Assembly (NCBI GenBank): GCA_035288405.1
Contig: DATEAK010000175.1
Span: 1 to 6,931, forward strand
DNA length: 6,931 nt
Origin: JACPSX01 sp035288405 [NCBI: bacterium]
Lineage (GTDB): Bacteria; JACPSX01
Direction: 5' to 3'
Numbering within the stretch: the stretch's first letter is position 1; each line of letters starts with the position of its first letter. Positions 1-6,931 of the stretch are shown in pieces. The notes below the pieces were generated by a model. That model saw only the letters and a list, made by a program, of their open reading frames with translations, did no database searches and was not told where the DNA came from. The translations under genes and the position numbers were made by a program.

Positions 1-561
1 GCGACTGGCCAGCAGGGAAGCCTGAACGGCACCGCTCGTCAAGGCGGCATAGCGCGCATCGGGCGTTCCCACTACGATGAAGGTGGTGTCTTTCTCCGGA
101 TTGAGCCCGCCGGACTGCAGGATCTCACGGGTCAGAACCTCGGTGAGTCCTCCGAAGCCGCTGGTGGCGATCTTCTTTCCTTTCAACTCCTGGATGGACT
201 TGATCTGCGGGTTGGCGATGAGCTTGTGCGGAAGCGAGGTTGAGGTCTGAAGGATGATCTTCCCCCTGGGACTGTGCATGAAAGCCTGGAAGATGTTCGG
301 AGCCAGGGAAAAATCCACGCTTCCGGCCAGCAGGGCACGCTCGCAAATCGCACCGCTCATCAAGATAAGATCAACGGAAAGCCCTTCCTTTTCGAAGTAC
401 CCCAGCTTGCGGGCAAGTTCCCAGTCACCGAAACTAACGCCGATCTCGGGAAGGCACACCTGCACCTTCTCCAAGGCCGTTACGGAAGGCGGAACCGCCA
501 ACCCGAATACCGTAATGATAGCAACGAGAGTCAACGCGCCTGCAAGCCTTCGCCTCTTCAT
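1..561 (-). CDS. ABC transporter periplasmic substrate-binding protein, NMT1/THI5-like (3' end cut by window)
   Basis: This is the N-terminal 187 residues of an exported solute-binding protein; the frame stays open to the left edge and the family is usually about 320-340 residues. The start is an ATG at 561-559 behind a strong Shine-Dalgarno (AAAGGGAGGA, 7-base spacer). Residues 1-29 look like a Sec signal peptide: KRRR, a hydrophobic stretch at 6-23, and a V-T-A cleavage site before Leu30. No lipobox Cys is seen, so it should be free in the periplasm. Family hallmarks are ELARKLGYFEKEGLSVDL (48-65), the ALLAGSVDFS segment (76-85), and SIQELKGKKIATSGFGG (122-138), which matches the usual 'DLKGKKIGV' phosphate/anion-loop region. 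It should capture a small ligand and deliver it to the permease and ATPase encoded upstream. NMT1-type proteins bind thiamine precursors, sulfonates, nitrate, phthalate and others, so the ligand is not predictable. It lies 41 bases after the M29-like gene, at the distal end of the cluster. Confidence 0.93.
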   Translation of the reverse strand, partial: MKRRRLAGALTLVAIITVFGLAVPPSVTALEKVQVCLPEIGVSFGDWELARKLGYFEKEGLSVDLILMSGAICERALLAGSVDFSLAPNIFQAFMHSPRGKIILQTSTSLPHKLIANPQIKSIQELKGKKIATSGFGGLTEVLTREILQSGGLNPEKDTTFIVVGTPDARYAALTSGAVQASLLASR

Positions 562-568
562 GGGATCG

Positions 569-578
569 TCCTCCCTTT
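569..578 (-). promoter_or_regulatory. Strong ribosome binding site for the solute-binding protein gene
   Basis: Read on the minus strand this is AAAGGGAGGA, 7 bases before the ATG at 561. It fixes the start of the solute-binding protein. Binding proteins are generally needed in excess over their membrane partners, and a strong site would help a gene this far down the operon. The 41-base gap (562-602) shows no hairpin-plus-T-run terminator. Confidence 0.75.
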
Positions 579-602
579 CTTTAATCCCCGGTTTGAATTC
601 CA

Positions 603-1622
603 TCAAAGCTGGAAAATTCCATCCCTAGTGACCAAGGTATCGTTTACCCGGATCGTCGGTTTCGTCATGAGACCGTCGAAGTGCGTTTTACTGTACAGGT
701 TCCCGCCCACATCGCTGTGCCCGATGGCGACGTGAACGGTTCCCAAAACTTTCTTATCGCTCCTCACGGCGCCCAGAGGGACGCCTTTGTGATTCGTGCC
801 GATGGAAATTTCCGCCGGGCAGGCGTTCCAATTTTCATCTCCGTGCTCGGCGAAGTAGCGCTCCACCTCACGGGCTTCTTTGCCGCCGTCGATCTTGACG
901 ACCCTCCCTCCTTTCACCGTGAGACGGACGGGCTCCTGGTAAAAACCTTCGGGCGTATGCCCGCAGAGATCCCAAACCACGGTGCCTTCTCCGGACCCTT
1001 CCAGGGGACACACGCGGTTTTCTCCGTAGGGCCAGGTGGTTCCCCCCCGATTCCCGGTTTTCTCGTTTTTCATCAGCATGCCGGGAGACGGATCCACACT
1101 GCGGGTCGGAGTCTCGACCAACTTGGCCCTCAAGTCCGTGCCGAAGGGGGTCGTCAAATGAAGGTCTCCCCCTTGCTTCCACACGTTTCGAATCTTCTGC
1201 TCCCTCTCCGTGATGATCCGGTAGTCTTCCTCGTTAATACTGCAAATCGGATTGCTCAGAATATCTACCGTGATCTCCTCCATCAGCAGTAATCCCCACT
1301 TGCCCTTGCGCTCTGTGAACTCGCTGTGCGCCAGAGCCTTCGTGGTCAGCAAAACGACGATCTGGGCTCCGCTGGCTCCGCAGGCCGTAATTTTCGTAGG
1401 CTCCGCCGTATGGTGAGCCCGCGGCAGATAGAGAGCCACCGTGGGCTCCGCACCTCTTTGCGCTACGGTCGCCATGACCGCTCGCCAGACCAGGGGATCC
1501 ATGGAAGTATCCGTGATGATCAGCACCTCTTCCCCCGGCTCCACATGTTTAAAGGGGAGTTGAAGGTTCTTCATGATTTCGACCATTTTCATCTCGGAGG
1601 ATACGTACTTGGATACGGACAT
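603..1622 (-). CDS. M29-aminopeptidase / 2,5-dihydroxypyridine dioxygenase (NicX)-like metalloenzyme
   Basis: A 339-residue cytoplasmic protein with no signal peptide or membrane segment. It resembles the COG2309 superfamily, which holds M29 aminopeptidases (AmpS/AmpT/PepS) and the Fe(II) ring-cleaving enzyme NicX of nicotinate breakdown. Recognisable blocks are TTPFGTDL (157-164), WPYGENRVCPLEGSGEGTVV (197-216), NACPAEISIGTN (266-277) and GTVHVAIGHSDVGGN (294-308) followed by the H-F-D of 314-316. By motif comparison from memory, the M29 metal ligands map to Glu201, Glu271, His297, His314 and Asp316, all present. The length is nearer to NicX (about 350) than to AmpT-type peptidases (about 400). 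The start is the ATG at 1622 with AAGGAG 7 bases upstream; a longer open frame to 1685 would overlap the permease gene and has no family support. Lying between transporter genes downstream of a molybdenum hydroxylase, it more likely acts on a small metabolite than on peptides. Automatic annotation would probably say 'leucyl aminopeptidase'. Fold confidence is high, reaction confidence low. Confidence 0.85.
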   Translation of the reverse strand: MSVSKYVSSEMKMVEIMKNLQLPFKHVEPGEEVLIITDTSMDPLVWRAVMATVAQRGAEPTVALYLPRAHHTAEPTKITACGASGAQIVVLLTTKALAHSEFTERKGKWGLLLMEEITVDILSNPICSINEEDYRIITEREQKIRNVWKQGGDLHLTTPFGTDLRAKLVETPTRSVDPSPGMLMKNEKTGNRGGTTWPYGENRVCPLEGSGEGTVVWDLCGHTPEGFYQEPVRLTVKGGRVVKIDGGKEAREVERYFAEHGDENWNACPAEISIGTNHKGVPLGAVRSDKKVLGTVHVAIGHSDVGGNLYSKTHFDGLMTKPTIRVNDTLVTRDGIFQL

Positions 1623-1629
1623 TTCCAGG

Positions 1630-1635
1630 CTCCTT
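1630..1635 (-). promoter_or_regulatory. Ribosome binding site fixing the start of the M29/NicX-like gene
   Basis: The minus strand reads AAGGAG, 7 bases before the ATG at 1622-1620. This supports the 339-residue protein rather than a longer version starting at 1685 inside the permease gene. It lies in the 28-base gap between the two genes. Confidence 0.75.
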
Positions 1636-1650
1636 CTTGTTGCCCCGGAG

Positions 1651-2493
1651 TTAGCGGGCGCGATCCGGTGCCCGCCAGGGAGCAATTTTTCTTTCCAGAC
1701 GCCGCAGCAGATCGGCGCAGACCACCCCCGACAATGTCAGAATCAGAATCCCCAGAAAAACCTTCGGGGTATCGTATGTGGCTCCACCCCGCATGATAAA
1801 ATAACCGACGCCGGCCATAGAGGCGTACATCTCCGCCACGACCACCATGATCAAGGTAATCCCGACCGACAGACGCAACCCCGCGATCAGAAAGGGCAGC
1901 GATGCGGGAAGCATGATCTTGGTGAAAATCTGGCGCTCCGTCGCCCGAAACGAGACGGCCGCCTCCACCAGAGCCGGATCCGCGCTCTCCACCCCCGCCT
2001 GGGCGTTGACGATGATCGGGAAGACGGCGCCCAAAAAGACCAGAGTCACTTTGGCCGTGAGCCCGATGCCGATCCACAGCACCAGAAGCGGGAGCAGGGC
2101 CACCCTCGGCGTGGAATACATGGCCATCACGAAAGGTTCCAGGATGGCGCGCAGGCTGCGGTAGCGCCCCATGAGGAGTCCCAGTGGGATGCCGACCAGA
2201 GCCGCCAGGCCGAATCCCGCCACGGCTTCGACAAAGCTCACGTAGAGGTGGGGATAAATGGTGGCATCCGTGAAAAATTCACGATAGGCCTCGATCAGGA
2301 CCGCACTGGGGGGACTGACAAACAACGGATCGACGAGCCCCAAACGACAAGCGATCTCCCAGGCGCCCAGAAAAAGGGCCACCGCGGAAATTCCGATGAT
2401 CCATGTCCAGGGGATTTTCTTTTCCCGAACCGCCAGAGCTTCAACGCTCAGGTCCGCGAGATCGAACTGACTTGGCTCAACCGCTCTGTTCAT
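1651..2493 (-). CDS. ABC transporter permease, SsuC/TauC/NrtB-type (BPD_transp_1)
   Basis: A 280-residue inner-membrane protein. It has a short cytoplasmic N-terminus with a charged patch (REKK, 23-26), then about six hydrophobic segments near residues 30-50, 85-108, 117-143, 148-166, 200-221 and 245-265. This is the layout of permeases that work with NMT1-type binding proteins. The cytoplasmic coupling ('EAA') loop is clear from Glu177 to Leu208, ending in LPASLPFLIAGLRL; the Gly usually found a few residues after EAA is Arg183 here. The ATG at 2493 lies 4 bases after the ATPase stop, with AAGGTGG 9 bases upstream inside the end of the ATPase gene, so translation is likely coupled. The frame is open upstream to 2607, but that part overlaps the ATPase gene and is not family-like. 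It should form a homodimeric channel with the neighbouring ATPase and receive ligand from the binding protein at 1-561. The substrate class is not determinable. Confidence 0.95.
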   Translation of the reverse strand: MNRAVEPSQFDLADLSVEALAVREKKIPWTWIIGISAVALFLGAWEIACRLGLVDPLFVSPPSAVLIEAYREFFTDATIYPHLYVSFVEAVAGFGLAALVGIPLGLLMGRYRSLRAILEPFVMAMYSTPRVALLPLLVLWIGIGLTAKVTLVFLGAVFPIIVNAQAGVESADPALVEAAVSFRATERQIFTKIMLPASLPFLIAGLRLSVGITLIMVVVAEMYASMAGVGYFIMRGGATYDTPKVFLGILILTLSGVVCADLLRRLERKIAPWRAPDRAR

Positions 2494-2497
2494 GAAT

Positions 2498-3280
2498 CTA
2501 CACCACCTTGATTTCTTCCTGAAGAGAGTTCCATAAGTATTTTCGGTACTCCAGGAACTGCATGCTGTTGCGAACCTCGTCTTTCCAGCGCGGATGCGGC
2601 AGATCAATGGTGATCCTGTCCTTGATCGTCGCCGGAGAAGCCGACATCAAAATCACTTCGTCGGAAAGAAAAATAGCCTCATCGATGCTGTGGGTGATGA
2701 AAACGATGGTCTTCGAGGTGATATCCCTCAGCTTCACAAGTTCCACCTGCATGATCTCACGAGTCTGGGCGTCCAGGGCACCGAACGGCTCATCCATCAG
2801 CAGGACTTGCGGCTCCGTCACCAGGGCTCGGGCCAATCCCACTCTCTGTTTCATGCCTCCGGAAGTCTCGTGCGGGTAGTAGGTGGCAAATTTTTTGAGG
2901 CCCATCTTGTCGAGAAGGTCGATTGCCTTGGGCCTGCGGATTTCCTTGCCCACTCCCTGCAGTTCGAGGGGAAATTCGACATTGGAGAGGACCGTTCTCC
3001 AGGGCAACAGCCGGACATCCTGAAATACCATGGACGCTCTCTCGTCGGGCCGTGTAACCCTGGAATCCCCCAGGTAAATTTCGCCCCGGGTGGGATTCAG
3101 CAGTCCACCCATCATTCGTAAGAGCGTCGTTTTTCCGCACCCGCTGGGACCTACAATGGAAACGAAGGAGTTCGGGCGGACCTCAAAATCAACGAACTTG
3201 ACCGCCACGAATCCGGCTTGATCTCCCGAGCGCAGGAAAACATGACTGAGGTTCGAGACTCTGATTCCCGCAGAATTCAC
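2498..3280 (-). CDS. ABC transporter ATP-binding protein, SsuB/TauB/NrtD-type
   Basis: A 260-residue cytoplasmic ATPase that powers the importer. All nucleotide-binding motifs are intact: Walker A GPSGCGKT (44-51), Q-loop Gln87 in FQDVRLLPW (86-94), signature SGGMKQR (140-146), Walker B VLLMDEPF (159-166), D-loop ALD (168-170) and switch His197 in ITHSIDEA. The FQD-LLPW Q-loop and the 'FGALDAQTR' stretch are typical of the nitrate/sulfonate/taurine subfamily. I choose the GTG at 3280-3278 because GAGAGGG lies 6 bases upstream and the protein then begins just before the conserved first strand (IRVSNLSHVF). An in-frame TTG at 3286 is a weaker alternative. The frame is open to 3574, but that extension runs through the 3' end of the molybdenum hydroxylase gene and reads as unrelated sequence. 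It starts 31 bases after the hydroxylase stop and is followed 4 bases later by the permease. Confidence 0.96.
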   Translation of the reverse strand: MNSAGIRVSNLSHVFLRSGDQAGFVAVKFVDFEVRPNSFVSIVGPSGCGKTTLLRMMGGLLNPTRGEIYLGDSRVTRPDERASMVFQDVRLLPWRTVLSNVEFPLELQGVGKEIRRPKAIDLLDKMGLKKFATYYPHETSGGMKQRVGLARALVTEPQVLLMDEPFGALDAQTREIMQVELVKLRDITSKTIVFITHSIDEAIFLSDEVILMSASPATIKDRITIDLPHPRWKDEVRNSMQFLEYRKYLWNSLQEEIKVV

Positions 3281-3286
3281 ATCCAA

Positions 3287-3293
3287 CCCTCTC
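3287..3293 (-). promoter_or_regulatory. Ribosome binding site fixing the GTG start of the ABC ATPase
   Basis: The minus strand reads GAGAGGG, then a 6-base spacer, then GTG at 3280-3278. It lies in the 31-base gap between the hydroxylase large subunit and the transporter genes, the widest gap in the upstream half of the cluster. No terminator or clear internal promoter is seen in this gap, so read-through from the hydroxylase genes is expected. Confidence 0.65.
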
Positions 3294-3311
3294 TCTTGAG
3301 CTAGAATCGGC

Positions 3312-5642
3312 TTATCCGCCCGTTTCACGCGCGGCGCCGGCGACTGCCTTCCAGATCCTTTCCGGAGAAAGCGGAAGGGAATTGAACTGGACTTTGAAAG
3401 GAGATAAAGCGTCTTCCACCGCCAGGAGGACCGCCGTTGAAGCCGGGATCGTGCCACCTTCGCCGGCGCCCTTGACACCCAGCGGATTGAGTTTCGTGGG
3501 ACTCTCCACGTGATCGACTTCGATGCGCGGCACATCACTGGGACCGGGGAGCAAATAATCCATGAAGCTCGCATTGAGGACCTGGCCGTTGTCGTCGTAG
3601 ATCACTTCTTCCAGAAGAGCGTTGCCGATTCCATGAGCCACCCCGCCGACCACCTGGCCCTCCACGATGAGCGGATTGAGAACCCGGCCGCAATCATGGC
3701 TCACGGCATATTTGAGAATCTTGACTCCTCCGGTCTCCGGATCCACCTCTACGATGCAGGCATGAGCCCCGTTGGAATGGGTGGCGCGGGTCGGAGGGAA
3801 AAACACCGTGGCCTCCAGGCCGGGCTGAATCCCTTTCGGAAGCACAAAACCGGACACGGCACCCGAAGCGATCCGGGCCACTTCCGCCAGAGCGACTTTT
3901 TTACTGCGTGTCCGGCTGGAATAGATCCACCCATCCTTGATGTCCAGGGAACGCACGGGTGCTTTCAGCATATTGGCGGCGATGGCCAGAGTTTTCTCCC
4001 TGACCTTGCGGCAGGCCGCAAAGACGGCGTTCCCCGCAGTGACGGTGGCCCGGCTGGCGAAGGTTCCAATGCCGTACGGGATAGTCGCCGTATCTCCGCA
4101 GATGACGGAAATATCGTCCAGATTCACCCCGAGCTCGTCGGCGGTGATTTGGGAAATCATCGTGTCATGGCCCTGTCCCTGCGGAGCGGTCCCCGTGAAA
4201 ACTTCGACACGGCCGGCCATCGTCACCCGCACGGTCGCACCCTCGTACGGTCCCAGGCCGGTTCCTTCCACGTAGCAGGCCACCCCGACTCCCTGATACT
4301 TCCCGTTCCGGAACAGAGTTTGCTGGCGCTTGCGAAACTCGGAATAACCGATTCTGCGCAGGGCTTGCCTCAAGCACTTGGGATAATCCCCGCTATCGTA
4401 AATCATGGGATGATTGTCGCGGTAGATGAGACCCAGCTTGTAGGGCATCTGCTCGGGTTGCACGAAGTTTTTGTACCGCAACCGTGTGGAATCCATCTTC
4501 AAAACCTTGGCGGCCTTCTCGATGAGCCTTTCCATGGTAAAGACCGCCTGCGGTCTTCCCGCTCCCCGCACGACGCTGGTCGGAACCTTGTTCGTGTAGA
4601 CAACCGTCGCCTTGAAATGATAGTTGGGGATCCGGTACGGACCGGGGAGTGTCGCTCCCGTGATCCAGGGCACCACCATGCTGGTGCTGTAGGCGCCCAT
4701 GTCGTGGATGAACCTCACACGCACGGCCAGGATGGTGCCGTCGGCCTTGAAGGCCATCTCGGCATAATGCACCTGATCCCGCTCCTGGCGCGCCGCTAGG
4801 CAGTGCTCGCGCCGATCTTCCGTGAACTTTACGGTCTTCTGCAACTTCATCGCCAACCAGGGAACCAGATAATTTTCGGCGTGAAACTGGCCTTTCACTC
4901 CAAAGCCTCCACCCACATTCGGAGTGATGACCCGGATCTTGTGATCGGGCATCTTCAACATGGAGACCAGTGCCCGGTGGATGCGATGAGGCCCCTGGGA
5001 AGTGGTCCAGATATTCAACTGACCCAGCTTGGAATCGAAAGTGACCAGCATTGCGCGAGTCTCCATCGGTTGACCCGCCGCCCGGTGCACGAACACTCTC
5101 TCGCGGATGACATGATCCGCCTCTCGGAAGGCCCGGTCCGGATTCCCCACGTTTTGTTCCAGGACACCAGCGATATTTTCCGGCGCCCTCTCATGAATCC
5201 GGGGAGCTTTCGGGTCCATGGCCTGCTCGATGTCCGTCACCGGATCCAACGGTTCATACTCGACGCGAATCAGGTCCAGTGCGTCTTCCGCAATGTACCG
5301 TGATTCGGCAACCACCGCCGCCACGGTTTCCCCGACGTAGCACACCTCGCCCCGGGCCAGAACCGGCTCCAGGATGGGCTTCAGCGCGGGGTGCGGAACC
5401 GAGAAAGGGAGAACCGGAATTTGGGCTCCGAAGTCTCGCTCGCTGACCACCGCCAGGACTCCCGGCAGCTGCAATGCTTCCGATGCGTCGAAATGAACGA
5501 TTCTGGCGCGCGCATGGGGGCTGCGCAAAAAGGCGGCATGAACGGTACCGTCAATCTGAAGGTCATCGACGAAGGTACCGCGACCTTGCAGAAGAGACAT
5601 ATCTTCTTTTCGTCTGACCCGGGCCCCCAAGTAGCGCTTCAT
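3312..5642 (-). CDS. Molybdenum hydroxylase large (catalytic, molybdopterin) subunit, CoxL/XdhA-like, form II type
   Basis: A 776-residue protein of normal length for the family. It carries the molybdopterin cofactor where a substrate carbon is hydroxylated with oxygen from water. The N-terminal 'a/b hammerhead' domain spans about 1-135 (GRGTFVDDL at 20-28, RSPHARA at 40-46) and is followed by the Mo-binding domains. Landmarks are TSQGPHRIHRAL (214-225), NVGGGFGVKG (242-251), the active-site loop VVRGAGRPQ (357-365), the cofactor motif GTAPQGQGHDT (484-494) and GVKGAGEGG (722-730), where Glu728 is the expected catalytic base. The loop lacks the AYxCSFR Cys of true CO dehydrogenase and fits the broad RGAGR group of aldehyde, purine and N-heterocycle hydroxylases. 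The ATG overlaps the small-subunit stop (ATGA, 5639-5642) and has GGAGG 7 bases upstream. No maturation gene (XdhC/CoxD-like) lies in the window. Its exact substrate is unknown. Confidence 0.95.
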   Translation of the reverse strand: MKRYLGARVRRKEDMSLLQGRGTFVDDLQIDGTVHAAFLRSPHARARIVHFDASEALQLPGVLAVVSERDFGAQIPVLPFSVPHPALKPILEPVLARGEVCYVGETVAAVVAESRYIAEDALDLIRVEYEPLDPVTDIEQAMDPKAPRIHERAPENIAGVLEQNVGNPDRAFREADHVIRERVFVHRAAGQPMETRAMLVTFDSKLGQLNIWTTSQGPHRIHRALVSMLKMPDHKIRVITPNVGGGFGVKGQFHAENYLVPWLAMKLQKTVKFTEDRREHCLAARQERDQVHYAEMAFKADGTILAVRVRFIHDMGAYSTSMVVPWITGATLPGPYRIPNYHFKATVVYTNKVPTSVVRGAGRPQAVFTMERLIEKAAKVLKMDSTRLRYKNFVQPEQMPYKLGLIYRDNHPMIYDSGDYPKCLRQALRRIGYSEFRKRQQTLFRNGKYQGVGVACYVEGTGLGPYEGATVRVTMAGRVEVFTGTAPQGQGHDTMISQITADELGVNLDDISVICGDTATIPYGIGTFASRATVTAGNAVFAACRKVREKTLAIAANMLKAPVRSLDIKDGWIYSSRTRSKKVALAEVARIASGAVSGFVLPKGIQPGLEATVFFPPTRATHSNGAHACIVEVDPETGGVKILKYAVSHDCGRVLNPLIVEGQVVGGVAHGIGNALLEEVIYDDNGQVLNASFMDYLLPGPSDVPRIEVDHVESPTKLNPLGVKGAGEGGTIPASTAVLLAVEDALSPFKVQFNSLPLSPERIWKAVAGAARETGG

Positions 5643-6166
5643 GGAACGACCTCCGAAACCGCGGCTCGGGCTTTCGAGGTCTTGGGACGTTTGAGAGCTT
5701 CCATCGCTTTACCGGCCTTGAGAACAGCTTGCACGATGCTCTGGTAGCCCGTGCAACGGCAAATGTTTCCTTCCAGGCAGCGCCGGATTTCTTCCTCTTT
5801 GGGAGCCGGATTATTCTGTAAAAGCCAATAGCTCATCATCAGAAATCCGGGCGTACAGTAGCCGCACTGAAGAGCGTGGTTGTCCCAAAAGGCCTCTTGA
5901 ATGGGATGCAACCCCGCCACACCCGCCAGCCCCTCCACAGTCAAGAGCTCGCAACCGTCCACCTGGACCGCCAGGGTCAGGCAAGAGCGCACCGGTTCTC
6001 CGTTCAAGAGAACCGTACAGGCACCGCATACCCCGTGCTCGCACCCCACGTGGGTCCCCGTAAGCCCGAGCTCGGCGCGCAGAAAGTCCGAAAGCAGGGT
6101 GCGGGCTTCGACTTCCCTCTCGTACTCTTTCTGGTTGATTTTCACCCGGATCTTTCGAGTTTTCAT
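5639..6166 (-). CDS. Molybdenum hydroxylase small subunit with two [2Fe-2S] clusters, CoxS-like
   Basis: A 175-residue electron-transfer subunit that passes electrons from the molybdenum centre to the FAD subunit. Its N-terminal plant-type ferredoxin domain binds one [2Fe-2S] cluster through Cys42, Cys47, Cys50 and Cys62 (GCEHGVCGACTVLLNG, 41-56). The C-terminal helical domain binds the second through Cys101, Cys104, Cys136 and Cys138 (QCGYCTPGF, 100-108; NICRCTGYQSI, 134-144). All eight ligands are present. The tail after about residue 155 is Lys/Arg/Ala-rich and a little longer than in many homologues. The start is the ATG at 6166-6164, which overlaps the stop of the FAD subunit (ATGA) and has GGGAG 6 bases upstream; the ferredoxin fold begins immediately after it. 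The frame is open to 6526, but that extension only mirrors the FAD-subunit gene. Without a Tat-type leader on this or the large subunit, the enzyme is expected in the cytoplasm. Confidence 0.97.
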   Translation of the reverse strand: MKTRKIRVKINQKEYEREVEARTLLSDFLRAELGLTGTHVGCEHGVCGACTVLLNGEPVRSCLTLAVQVDGCELLTVEGLAGVAGLHPIQEAFWDNHALQCGYCTPGFLMMSYWLLQNNPAPKEEEIRRCLEGNICRCTGYQSIVQAVLKAGKAMEALKRPKTSKARAAVSEVVP

Positions 6167-6931
6167 TTCCCGCTCCCATTGTTGCCGCTGTTCCGCAATG
6201 CCTGACGCCACGCTTTCTCCACGACCCGCCGCGCCAGGACTCCCGTCAAGTGCTTCCGGAACTCCGCCGAGGCGTGGATATCCCCTTCGGGATCCACACT
6301 CTCCCTGGCCAGAAGTCCCAATTGGCCCAGCAGGCGCGGAGTGAGGCTCTCTCCCTTCAGGGCACCCTCCACGGTGGAAAGTCGAACCGGAGTCCCCGAG
6401 ACACCCGCGACTCCGATGCGTCCTTCCCGTACGGTTCCATTTTCTTCCACTGAAACCGTGGCGGCGGCGGCCACGATGGCAAAGTCTCCGGGGCGCCGGC
6501 TGAACTCCAGGATTGCCTGTCCACAACTTGGAGACGGGCGTTGAAAAACCAGCCGGGTGGCTACTTCGTCAGGCTGGACATCGGTTGTAAAATAGGTGAG
6601 GAAAAAAAATTCCGCACCGACCGACCGGCTTCCTCTTGGTTTGCTCTGCAGTGTGATCTCACCACCCAATACCAGAAAGGCGAGCGGCAGCTCCGCGGAA
6701 GGGTCTGCGTGGGTGATGCTCCCCCCCAGCGTCCCGCGCGTGCGGATGGCCGGATAACCGATCAGGGAAGTTGCTTCTGCAAGCAAGGGGAGAGAAGATT
6801 GGATTTGAGGTGACGACTCGATAACCCGATGTCGAACCAGAGACCCCAGAATCAGCCCGTCTTCGGTGCTGCTGACCTTTCCCAGCTCATCGAGCCCGTT
6901 GATGTCGATCAGATTCGAAGGCCTGGCCAGT
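6163..6931 (-). CDS. Molybdenum hydroxylase medium (FAD-binding) subunit, CoxM-like (5' end cut by window)
   Basis: The C-terminal 255 residues of the FAD subunit. The frame stays open to the right edge, so roughly the first 45-50 residues of a protein usually near 290 are missing, including the first FAD-binding AGG(T/H)SL motif. The visible part begins LARPSNLIDI, a standard segment just after that motif. It continues with IGYPAIRTRGTLGGSITHADP (near visible residues 57-77), the second FAD pyrophosphate-binding signature. Next come LTYFTTDVQPDE and FSRRPGDFAIVAAAA, then the C-terminal CO-dehydrogenase-flavoprotein domain (about the last 100 residues). A TTG at 6786 would give a shorter frame, but it falls inside the conserved domain and is not the true start. 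The subunit takes electrons from the [2Fe-2S] subunit and passes them to an external acceptor. It is the first gene of the cluster visible here, and its stop overlaps the next ATG. Confidence 0.95.
   Translation of the reverse strand, partial: LARPSNLIDINGLDELGKVSSTEDGLILGSLVRHRVIESSPQIQSSLPLLAEATSLIGYPAIRTRGTLGGSITHADPSAELPLAFLVLGGEITLQSKPRGSRSVGAEFFFLTYFTTDVQPDEVATRLVFQRPSPSCGQAILEFSRRPGDFAIVAAAATVSVEENGTVREGRIGVAGVSGTPVRLSTVEGALKGESLTPRLLGQLGLLARESVDPEGDIHASAEFRKHLTGVLARRVVEKAWRQALRNSGNNGSGK

What the first reader, a model, noticed from the sequence alone, without database searches (positions are those of the whole stretch)
1..6931. One operon joins a molybdenum hydroxylase, a complete NMT1-type importer and a NicX/M29-like enzyme: candidate uptake-and-degradation pathway for an N-heteroaromatic or similar compound
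Seen: seven co-directional genes with overlaps or gaps of 41 bases or less. Known: nicotinate breakdown uses a molybdenum hydroxylase (NicAB) and later NicX, a COG2309-fold ring-opening dioxygenase; NMT1-type importers carry small organic ligands including aromatic acids. Inference: the genes form a module in which import, hydroxylation and a later hydrolytic or ring-opening step act on the same molecule. The exact gene set, with the transporter genes split around the metalloenzyme, does not match a characterised pathway I can name.
Basis: partly seen in the sequence, partly recalled or inferred. Interest (0 to 1): 0.6.

Follow-up and report, generated by a model that had tools for sequence, protein, structure and literature searches.

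The report
Conserved import-and-breakdown operon, substrate unknown
An unidentified bacterium carries a gene set that probably imports a small organic acid, oxidises it with a molybdenum enzyme and then cuts it with an uncharacterised metal enzyme; related sets recur in other bacteria, but what they eat is unknown.

Summary
In detail: seven minus-strand genes, with 4-base overlaps or gaps of at most 41 bases, encode a CoxMSL-type molybdenum hydroxylase, ABC ATPase, permease, a NicX/M29-fold protein and an NMT1-type binding protein; the first and last are cut by the window ends.

The grouping recurs. In one class-level set, 6 of 148 genomes carry a relative of the NicX/M29-fold gene, 12 genes in all. 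UbiD-type decarboxylase genes lie within 1.4 kb of 12 of 12, CoxL/CoxS genes within 4.3 kb of 10 of 12. Among 422 binding-protein matches in those genomes, the window's ranks 1, 2 and 4 flank such genes. Outside that class the partnership was not seen.

The fold is NicX's (Z 30.9), but the metal ligands are those of M29 hydrolases; two of NicX's four iron ligands are missing.

Best reading: a catabolic module for an unsaturated or (hetero)aromatic acid, with a hydrolytic rather than NicX-type step and a UbiD step expected outside the window. The substrate is unproven, and the exact seven-gene order was found nowhere else.

The parts
6163..6930 (-). CoxM-like FAD-binding subunit of a molybdenum hydroxylase, 5' end outside the window
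   Evidence: FAD_binding_5 1.5e-28 and CO_deh_flav_C 2.8e-22
5639..6166 (-). CoxS-like [2Fe-2S] subunit, 175 aa
   Evidence: Fer2_2 2e-33, Fer2 1.7e-8; cluster cysteines present (read)
3312..5642 (-). CoxL-like molybdenum subunit, 776 aa, loop VVRGAGR
   Evidence: MoCoBD_2 3.8e-87, MoCoBD_1 1.5e-77; PDB matches include CO dehydrogenase, 6-hydroxypseudooxynicotine dehydrogenase and quinoline oxidoreductase
2498..3280 (-). ABC importer ATPase, 260 aa from GTG 3280 (GTG 3328 also possible)
   Evidence: ABC_tran 2.2e-30; starts
1651..2493 (-). ABC importer permease, 280 aa
   Evidence: BPD_transp_1 7.1e-30; coordinates
603..1622 (-). NicX/M29-fold metalloprotein, 339 aa, probable hydrolase; metal ligands by alignment E201, E271, H297, H314, D316
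   Evidence: profile match to NicX 5.3e-30; model pLDDT 83.8, NicX Z 30.9; ligand columns
1..561 (-). NMT1-type solute-binding protein with signal-peptide-like start, 3' end outside the window
   Evidence: NMT1 5.2e-13; best relatives flank M29-like genes

Best explanation
The window is most of one operon of a catabolic module. An NMT1-type ABC importer brings in a small unsaturated or (hetero)aromatic acid. A three-subunit molybdenum hydroxylase adds a hydroxyl group from water at an activated carbon. The NicX-fold protein, with an M29-type metal site, then hydrolyses the activated ring, amide or lactone bond. A UbiD-type (prenylated-FMN) decarboxylase is expected just outside the window, acting before or after the hydroxylation. 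Shown here: gene content, domain make-up, predicted fold, metal ligands by alignment, and recurrence of binding-protein, CoxL and M29-like genes with UbiD genes in one class of bacteria. Inferred: import, order of steps, hydrolysis as the reaction, a UbiD gene in this organism, and the substrate class.
For: 12 of 12 M29-like genes in six genomes of one class have a UbiD gene within 1333 bases; 10 of 12 have CoxL/CoxS within 4294 bases. Expected at a random gene in those genomes: 0.04-0.07 for UbiD and 0.05-0.09 for CoxL. Of 422 binding-protein matches in the six genomes, ranks 1, 2 and 4 are beside M29-like genes. The best of 37 CoxL matches in G425 lies 80 bases from an M29-like gene, and the window CoxL groups with M29-adjacent CoxL proteins at 99/98 support. 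The M29 ligands E201, E271, H297, H314 and D316 are present; E201, E271 and H297 are invariant in 47 of 47 rows.
Against: The six genomes are related, and the class was chosen because two of them (G002, G009) had already shown CoxL nearby. Better CoxL matches in G424 (46%) and G002 (45%) lie outside the M29 modules found. The binding protein beside an M29-like gene in G002 is not among the best matches listed. The permease has better matches elsewhere in those genomes. The window's M29-like protein is only 40% identical to its nearest relative and lies outside the clade of UbiD-associated ones. H297, H314 and D316 could also form a two-His-one-Asp iron site, so oxygen chemistry is not excluded. 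No UbiD gene could be looked for beside the window.
Confidence: 0.5

Rival explanations
1. The genes are neighbours in a catabolic island, but the hydroxylase and the M29-like protein act on different compounds; adjacency reflects shared regulation in genomes crowded with such genes.
For: The six genomes hold 35-63 UbiD, 17-37 CoxL and 17-120 NMT1 binding-protein matches each. In other bacteria M29-like genes sit with biotin-dependent carboxylases, MmgE/PrpD or TRAP/ABC transporter genes and no CoxL.
Against: Neighbour rates far above those densities; co-orthology of binding protein and CoxL.
Confidence: 0.27
2. The M29-like protein is a NicX-type Fe(II) ring-opening dioxygenase in a nicotinate- or picolinate-like pathway.
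For: NicX is the best fold match (Z 30.9) and the best sequence match among solved structures. H318 and D320 of NicX are matched by H314 and D316.
Against: NicX His265 is Glu271 and Ser302 is Ala299 here; both are essential in NicX. Two M29 metal ligands absent from NicX, E201 and H297, are present.
Confidence: 0.13
3. The M29-like protein is a true M29 aminopeptidase and the operon serves peptide or amino-acid scavenging.
For: Five of the six residues EEHYHD are present; public annotation of relatives says aminopeptidase.
Against: The catalytic Tyr position, seven residues after the His, is D304; the chain matches NicX better than peptidases; partners in other genomes are UbiD and molybdenum hydroxylase genes, not peptide genes.
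Confidence: 0.06
4. The hydroxylase is an aerobic CO dehydrogenase.
For: Its best NCBIfam model is a CO dehydrogenase group and its best PDB match a mycobacterial CoxL.
Against: The model's cut-off is not reached (838.9 of 950 bits); the loop that reads ACSFR in the mycobacterial enzyme reads VVRGAGR here (that this loop marks true CO dehydrogenases is recalled).
Confidence: 0.02

Closest known systems
NicX, 2,5-dihydroxypyridine 5,6-dioxygenase (7cn3, 7cup)
   Same: Whole-chain fold (Z 30.9, rmsd 2.9, 312 residues); the His-x-Asp metal pair
   Different: His265 and Ser302 of NicX are Glu and Ala; two extra M29-type ligands are present
M29 aminopeptidases (AmpS, AmpT, PepS)
   Same: Metal ligands E, E, H, H, D in order; fold (Z 20.1-21.6)
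   Different: No Tyr at the catalytic position; 339 rather than about 410 residues; catabolic gene context
CoxL/KdhL/QorL-type molybdenum hydroxylases
   Same: Three-subunit FAD, [2Fe-2S] and molybdenum architecture
   Different: No curated NCBIfam model is reached by the three subunits; substrate unassigned
Picolinate (pic) and furan (hmf) degradation clusters
   Same: Dehydrogenase or molybdenum hydroxylase plus decarboxylase plus ring opening (passages)
   Different: PicC is annotated as an amidohydrolase-family protein, not UbiD; hmf uses CoA thioesters. The passages read mention no NMT1 importer or M29-like gene

Membership tests
NicX-type 2,5-dihydroxypyridine dioxygenase | NicX fold over the whole chain | tested here: met
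   Z 30.9, 312 of 339 residues aligned
NicX-type 2,5-dihydroxypyridine dioxygenase | Fe(II) ligands His265, Ser302, His318, Asp320 | tested here: not met
   Aligned residues Glu271, Ala299, His314, Asp316
M29 aminopeptidase | Catalytic residues EEHYHD | tested here: not met
   Five of six present; the Tyr position is D304
M29 aminopeptidase | Match to Pfam Peptidase_M29 | tested here: not met
   No Pfam match for the window protein at E 0.001; a relative scores 23.1 bits, under the cut-off of 27
Molybdenum hydroxylase, xanthine dehydrogenase / CoxLMS superfamily | Molybdopterin, [2Fe-2S] and FAD domains in three subunits | tested here: met
   Pfam matches above cut-off in all three
Aerobic CO dehydrogenase | Curated model score and Cys-bearing active-site loop | tested here: not met
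   838.9 of 950 bits; loop VVRGAGR
NMT1-type ABC importer | ATPase, permease and NMT1 binding protein | tested here: met
   ABC_tran, BPD_transp_1, NMT1; binding protein truncated by the window
N-heteroaromatic degradation pathway | Substrate is an N-heteroaromatic | not testable with these tools
   No model assigns a substrate to the hydroxylase subunits
UbiD / molybdenum hydroxylase / M29-like module | UbiD gene next to the M29-like gene | not testable with these tools
   Window ends; no parent genome held. Met in 12 of 12 genes of six other genomes

The most novel reading that the evidence does not exclude
A pathway type not yet described: UbiD decarboxylase, molybdenum hydroxylase and a NicX-fold enzyme with an M29-type hydrolytic metal site degrade (hetero)aromatic acids one after another, in parallel copies tuned to different acids, in a bacterial class with 35-63 UbiD genes per genome sampled. 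NicX would then be a cousin that kept one metal position of the M29 site and lost the other.
Probability: 0.3. Interest if true: 0.62.

Novelty: new variant of a known kind. Interest (0 to 1): 0.45.

Why it matters
It turns a loose guess into testable predictions. It names a recurring gene partnership (UbiD, CoxLMS, NicX/M29-fold protein, NMT1 binding protein), points to the binding protein as the quickest route to the substrate, and marks a NicX-fold family, now annotated as aminopeptidase or hypothetical, that sits between peptidases and ring-cleavage enzymes in its metal site.

Tried and rejected
Contig extension failed: no whole genome is held for the window. A genome-contig scan with the single protein found no relative; 11 plasmid records gave distant ones. 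In a sample of the class of G008 the gene was found only in G008 itself (1 of 289). In the phylum samples, 3 of 198 and 4 of 297 genomes matched, starting genomes included; for G035, G159 and G288, found there, the stretches read showed no UbiD or CoxL (some stretches are under 4 kb).

Rejected: NicX dioxygenase (two ligands replaced), aminopeptidase (Tyr missing, context), CO dehydrogenase (loop, score). Considered: that H-x-D is ancestral with one later switch to R-x-E. The tree test speaks against the 25 R-x-E rows being one clade (p-AU 0.005), but the window has a long branch (1.02) and the group was named after the tree was seen.

Weak points. My gene caller takes the longest frame; for L001, L004, L010, L012, L014, L019 and L023 an antisense frame hid the M29-like gene, so these seven are absent from the 40-row tree; one search adds them to the ligand count (47 rows). 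A frame called as the L064 permease was wrong; the permease there is the match. L058's M29-like gene equals L009's and was left out of the tree. The CoxL tree used the M29 loci and the best-scoring others, not every CoxL copy; L057's partial CoxL, the same gene as L009's, was dropped, L056's CoxL, split in two frames, is absent, and L025's is represented by its C-terminal piece only because of N's. In one search at most 150 candidates per genome were scored, so 422 is a lower bound. Most UbiD and carboxylase genes were named by BLAST cluster; family searches were run on a few of them. Searches for a described pathway with these parts returned nothing I recognised as matching; they cover open PubMed Central papers only, and most hits were seen only as listings with the start of the abstract.

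Full report
What is there. The window holds seven minus-strand genes in tight order: CoxM-like FAD subunit, CoxS, CoxL, ABC ATPase, ABC permease, a NicX/M29-like protein and an NMT1 solute-binding protein. Neighbours overlap by 4 bases or are 31, 4, 28 and 41 bases apart. The first gene lacks its start and the last its end because the window stops there.

The hydroxylase. The three subunits have the expected domains, and the cysteines of both iron-sulphur clusters are present (read). The molybdenum subunit has the loop VVRGAGR where mycobacterial CO dehydrogenase has ACSFR; that this loop marks true CO dehydrogenases is recalled. None of the NCBIfam models listed for the three subunits reaches its curated score. 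The top PDB matches are a CO dehydrogenase, 6-hydroxypseudooxynicotine dehydrogenase and quinoline oxidoreductase. The substrate cannot be named from sequence.

The metalloprotein. It has no Pfam or NCBIfam match at E 0.001. A profile of 7 relatives finds NicX at 3.9e-20 and one of 31 at 5.3e-30, with M29 peptidases weaker. The AlphaFold2 model (13 rows, pLDDT 83.8, pTM 0.83) matches NicX first (Z 30.9, rmsd 2.9, 312 aligned) and PepS, AmpS and AmpT next (Z 20.1 to 21.6). NicX binds iron through His265, Ser302, His318 and Asp320 (PMC7910607, section 8 and one passage read). The aligned residues here, read, are E271, A299, H314 and D316. M29 peptidases carry EEHYHD; in AmpS E319 bridges two metals, E253 and H348 hold one and H381 and D383 the other (PMC7023490, passages). 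Here E201, E271, H297, H314 and D316 are present; the Tyr position, taken as seven residues after the His, is D304. E201, E271 and H297 are invariant in 47 of 47 members aligned; H-x-D occurs in 16 and R-x-E in 31, with no mixed pair. So, by alignment, the window protein keeps both M29 metal positions, NicX keeps the second and not the first, and the 31 R-x-E relatives keep the first and have changed the second. No metal was measured. A two-His-one-Asp iron site (H297, H314, D316) is not excluded.

Relatives. A first scan of species genomes found nothing; a second, with a three-sequence alignment, found 18 loci at 30-38% identity. CoxL was near the M29-like gene in 2 of the 25 loci then in hand, 7 from plasmids and 18 from genomes: L025 and L009, both from metagenome genomes labelled Deltaproteobacteria. 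In the class of L025's genome, 6 of 148 genomes match at 1e-30 or better, 12 genes in all; two of the six are the starting genomes G009 and G002. I read the surroundings. A UbiD-type gene lies within 1333 bases in 12 of 12. CoxL or CoxS lies within 4294 bases in 10 of 12; the other two are on contigs of 3574 and 3419 bases. The nearest neighbour of each type is on the same strand. In the stretches read, CoxM occurs in 6 of 6 genomes, and an NMT1 binding protein and a metallo-beta-lactamase-fold gene in 5 of 6 each. In the other loci of the 41-source set UbiD was not seen, and CoxL only in the window.

Is that more than chance? These genomes are rich in such genes: 35 to 63 UbiD, 17 to 37 CoxL and 17 to 120 NMT1 binding-protein matches each. 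A random gene there would have a UbiD that near with probability 0.04 to 0.07 and a CoxL that near with 0.05 to 0.09. For the four genomes that were not starting points the products are 6e-6 and 2e-5, but the genomes are related, so these are not true p-values. Orthology is better evidence. Of 422 binding-protein matches in the six genomes, ranks 1, 2 and 4 for the window's own binding protein are those beside M29-like genes; at most 150 candidates per genome were scored. The best of 37 CoxL matches in G425 lies 80 bases from an M29-like gene, and in G009 the M29-adjacent CoxL, split by N's, has the highest identity (52-54%). In a CoxL tree of 24 rows the window groups with the M29-adjacent CoxL of L054 and L025 at 99/98 support. 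Against this: in G424 and G002 better CoxL matches (46% and 45%) lie outside the M29 modules found, and the binding protein 110 bases from an M29-like gene in G002 is not among the best matches listed.

What differs. The window's M29-like protein is sister to a 20-row clade of 12 UbiD/Cox-associated genes and 8 genes beside biotin-dependent carboxylases (carboxylase domains by Pfam for L003, by BLAST cluster for the rest). None of those 20 has its H-x-D pair. Its nearest sequence is 40% identical (L052), from a module whose CoxL is of another type. The window's permease has its best matches in these genomes away from the M29-like genes, so a permease and ATPase between CoxL and the M29-like gene is so far a feature of this operon alone. 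An operon with CoxL, CoxM, CoxS, ATPase, permease, NMT1 binding protein and UbiD, without an M29-like gene, is present in L064.

Interpretation. The binding protein, hydroxylase and metalloprotein probably serve one pathway. UbiD enzymes decarboxylate acrylic and (hetero)aromatic compounds (start of the abstract of PMC8379154), and molybdenum hydroxylases of this type hydroxylate heteroaromatic or activated carbons (general knowledge), so an unsaturated or heteroaromatic acid is a fair guess. On its ligands the metalloprotein is more likely a hydrolase than a NicX-type dioxygenase. The closest characterised logic is the picolinate pathway, with a dehydrogenase, a decarboxylase and 2,5-dihydroxypyridine dioxygenase (passages of PMC10142695), and the furan pathway, where no gene was assigned to lactone hydrolysis after the molybdenum hydroxylase (passages of PMC6678421). 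Both differ in the families used.

Verdict. Real, recurring in its core, substrate unknown: a new variant of known catabolic operons rather than a new kind of system. The most surprising parts are how the metal ligands divide between NicX, M29 and this family, and the mass of UbiD and CoxL genes in the genomes where the relatives live.

Noticed in passing
Genomes G002, G009, G419, G424, G425, G428 (loci L009, L025, L051-L059): Each carries 35-63 UbiD, 17-37 CoxL and 17-120 NMT1 binding-protein matches: an unusual mass of decarboxylase and molybdenum-hydroxylase genes.
   Followed up: partly
window 603-1622 and 46 relatives: His-x-Asp (16 rows) and Arg-x-Glu (31 rows) switch together and never mix; the window is the only H-x-D member inside its branch of the tree.
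   Followed up: partly
L003 10004-14788; L008, L011, L013, L014, L015, L016, L018, L020: M29-like genes share these loci with biotin-dependent carboxylase genes (PYC_OADA-like; Pfam for L003).
   Followed up: partly
L054 4793-7666: CoxS and CoxL read as one fused frame of 957 codons.
   Followed up: no
L021 8034-13365; L010 4670-9050: M29-like genes near ABC importer genes with no CoxL match in the locus.
   Followed up: no
L062 2216-10177: Four M29-like genes within 8 kb, with a MmgE/PrpD-like gene upstream.
   Followed up: no
fold search with the model of window 603-1622: Crocagin proteins CgnE and CgnB match the model at Z about 15, so the fold also occurs in a biosynthetic pathway.
   Followed up: no
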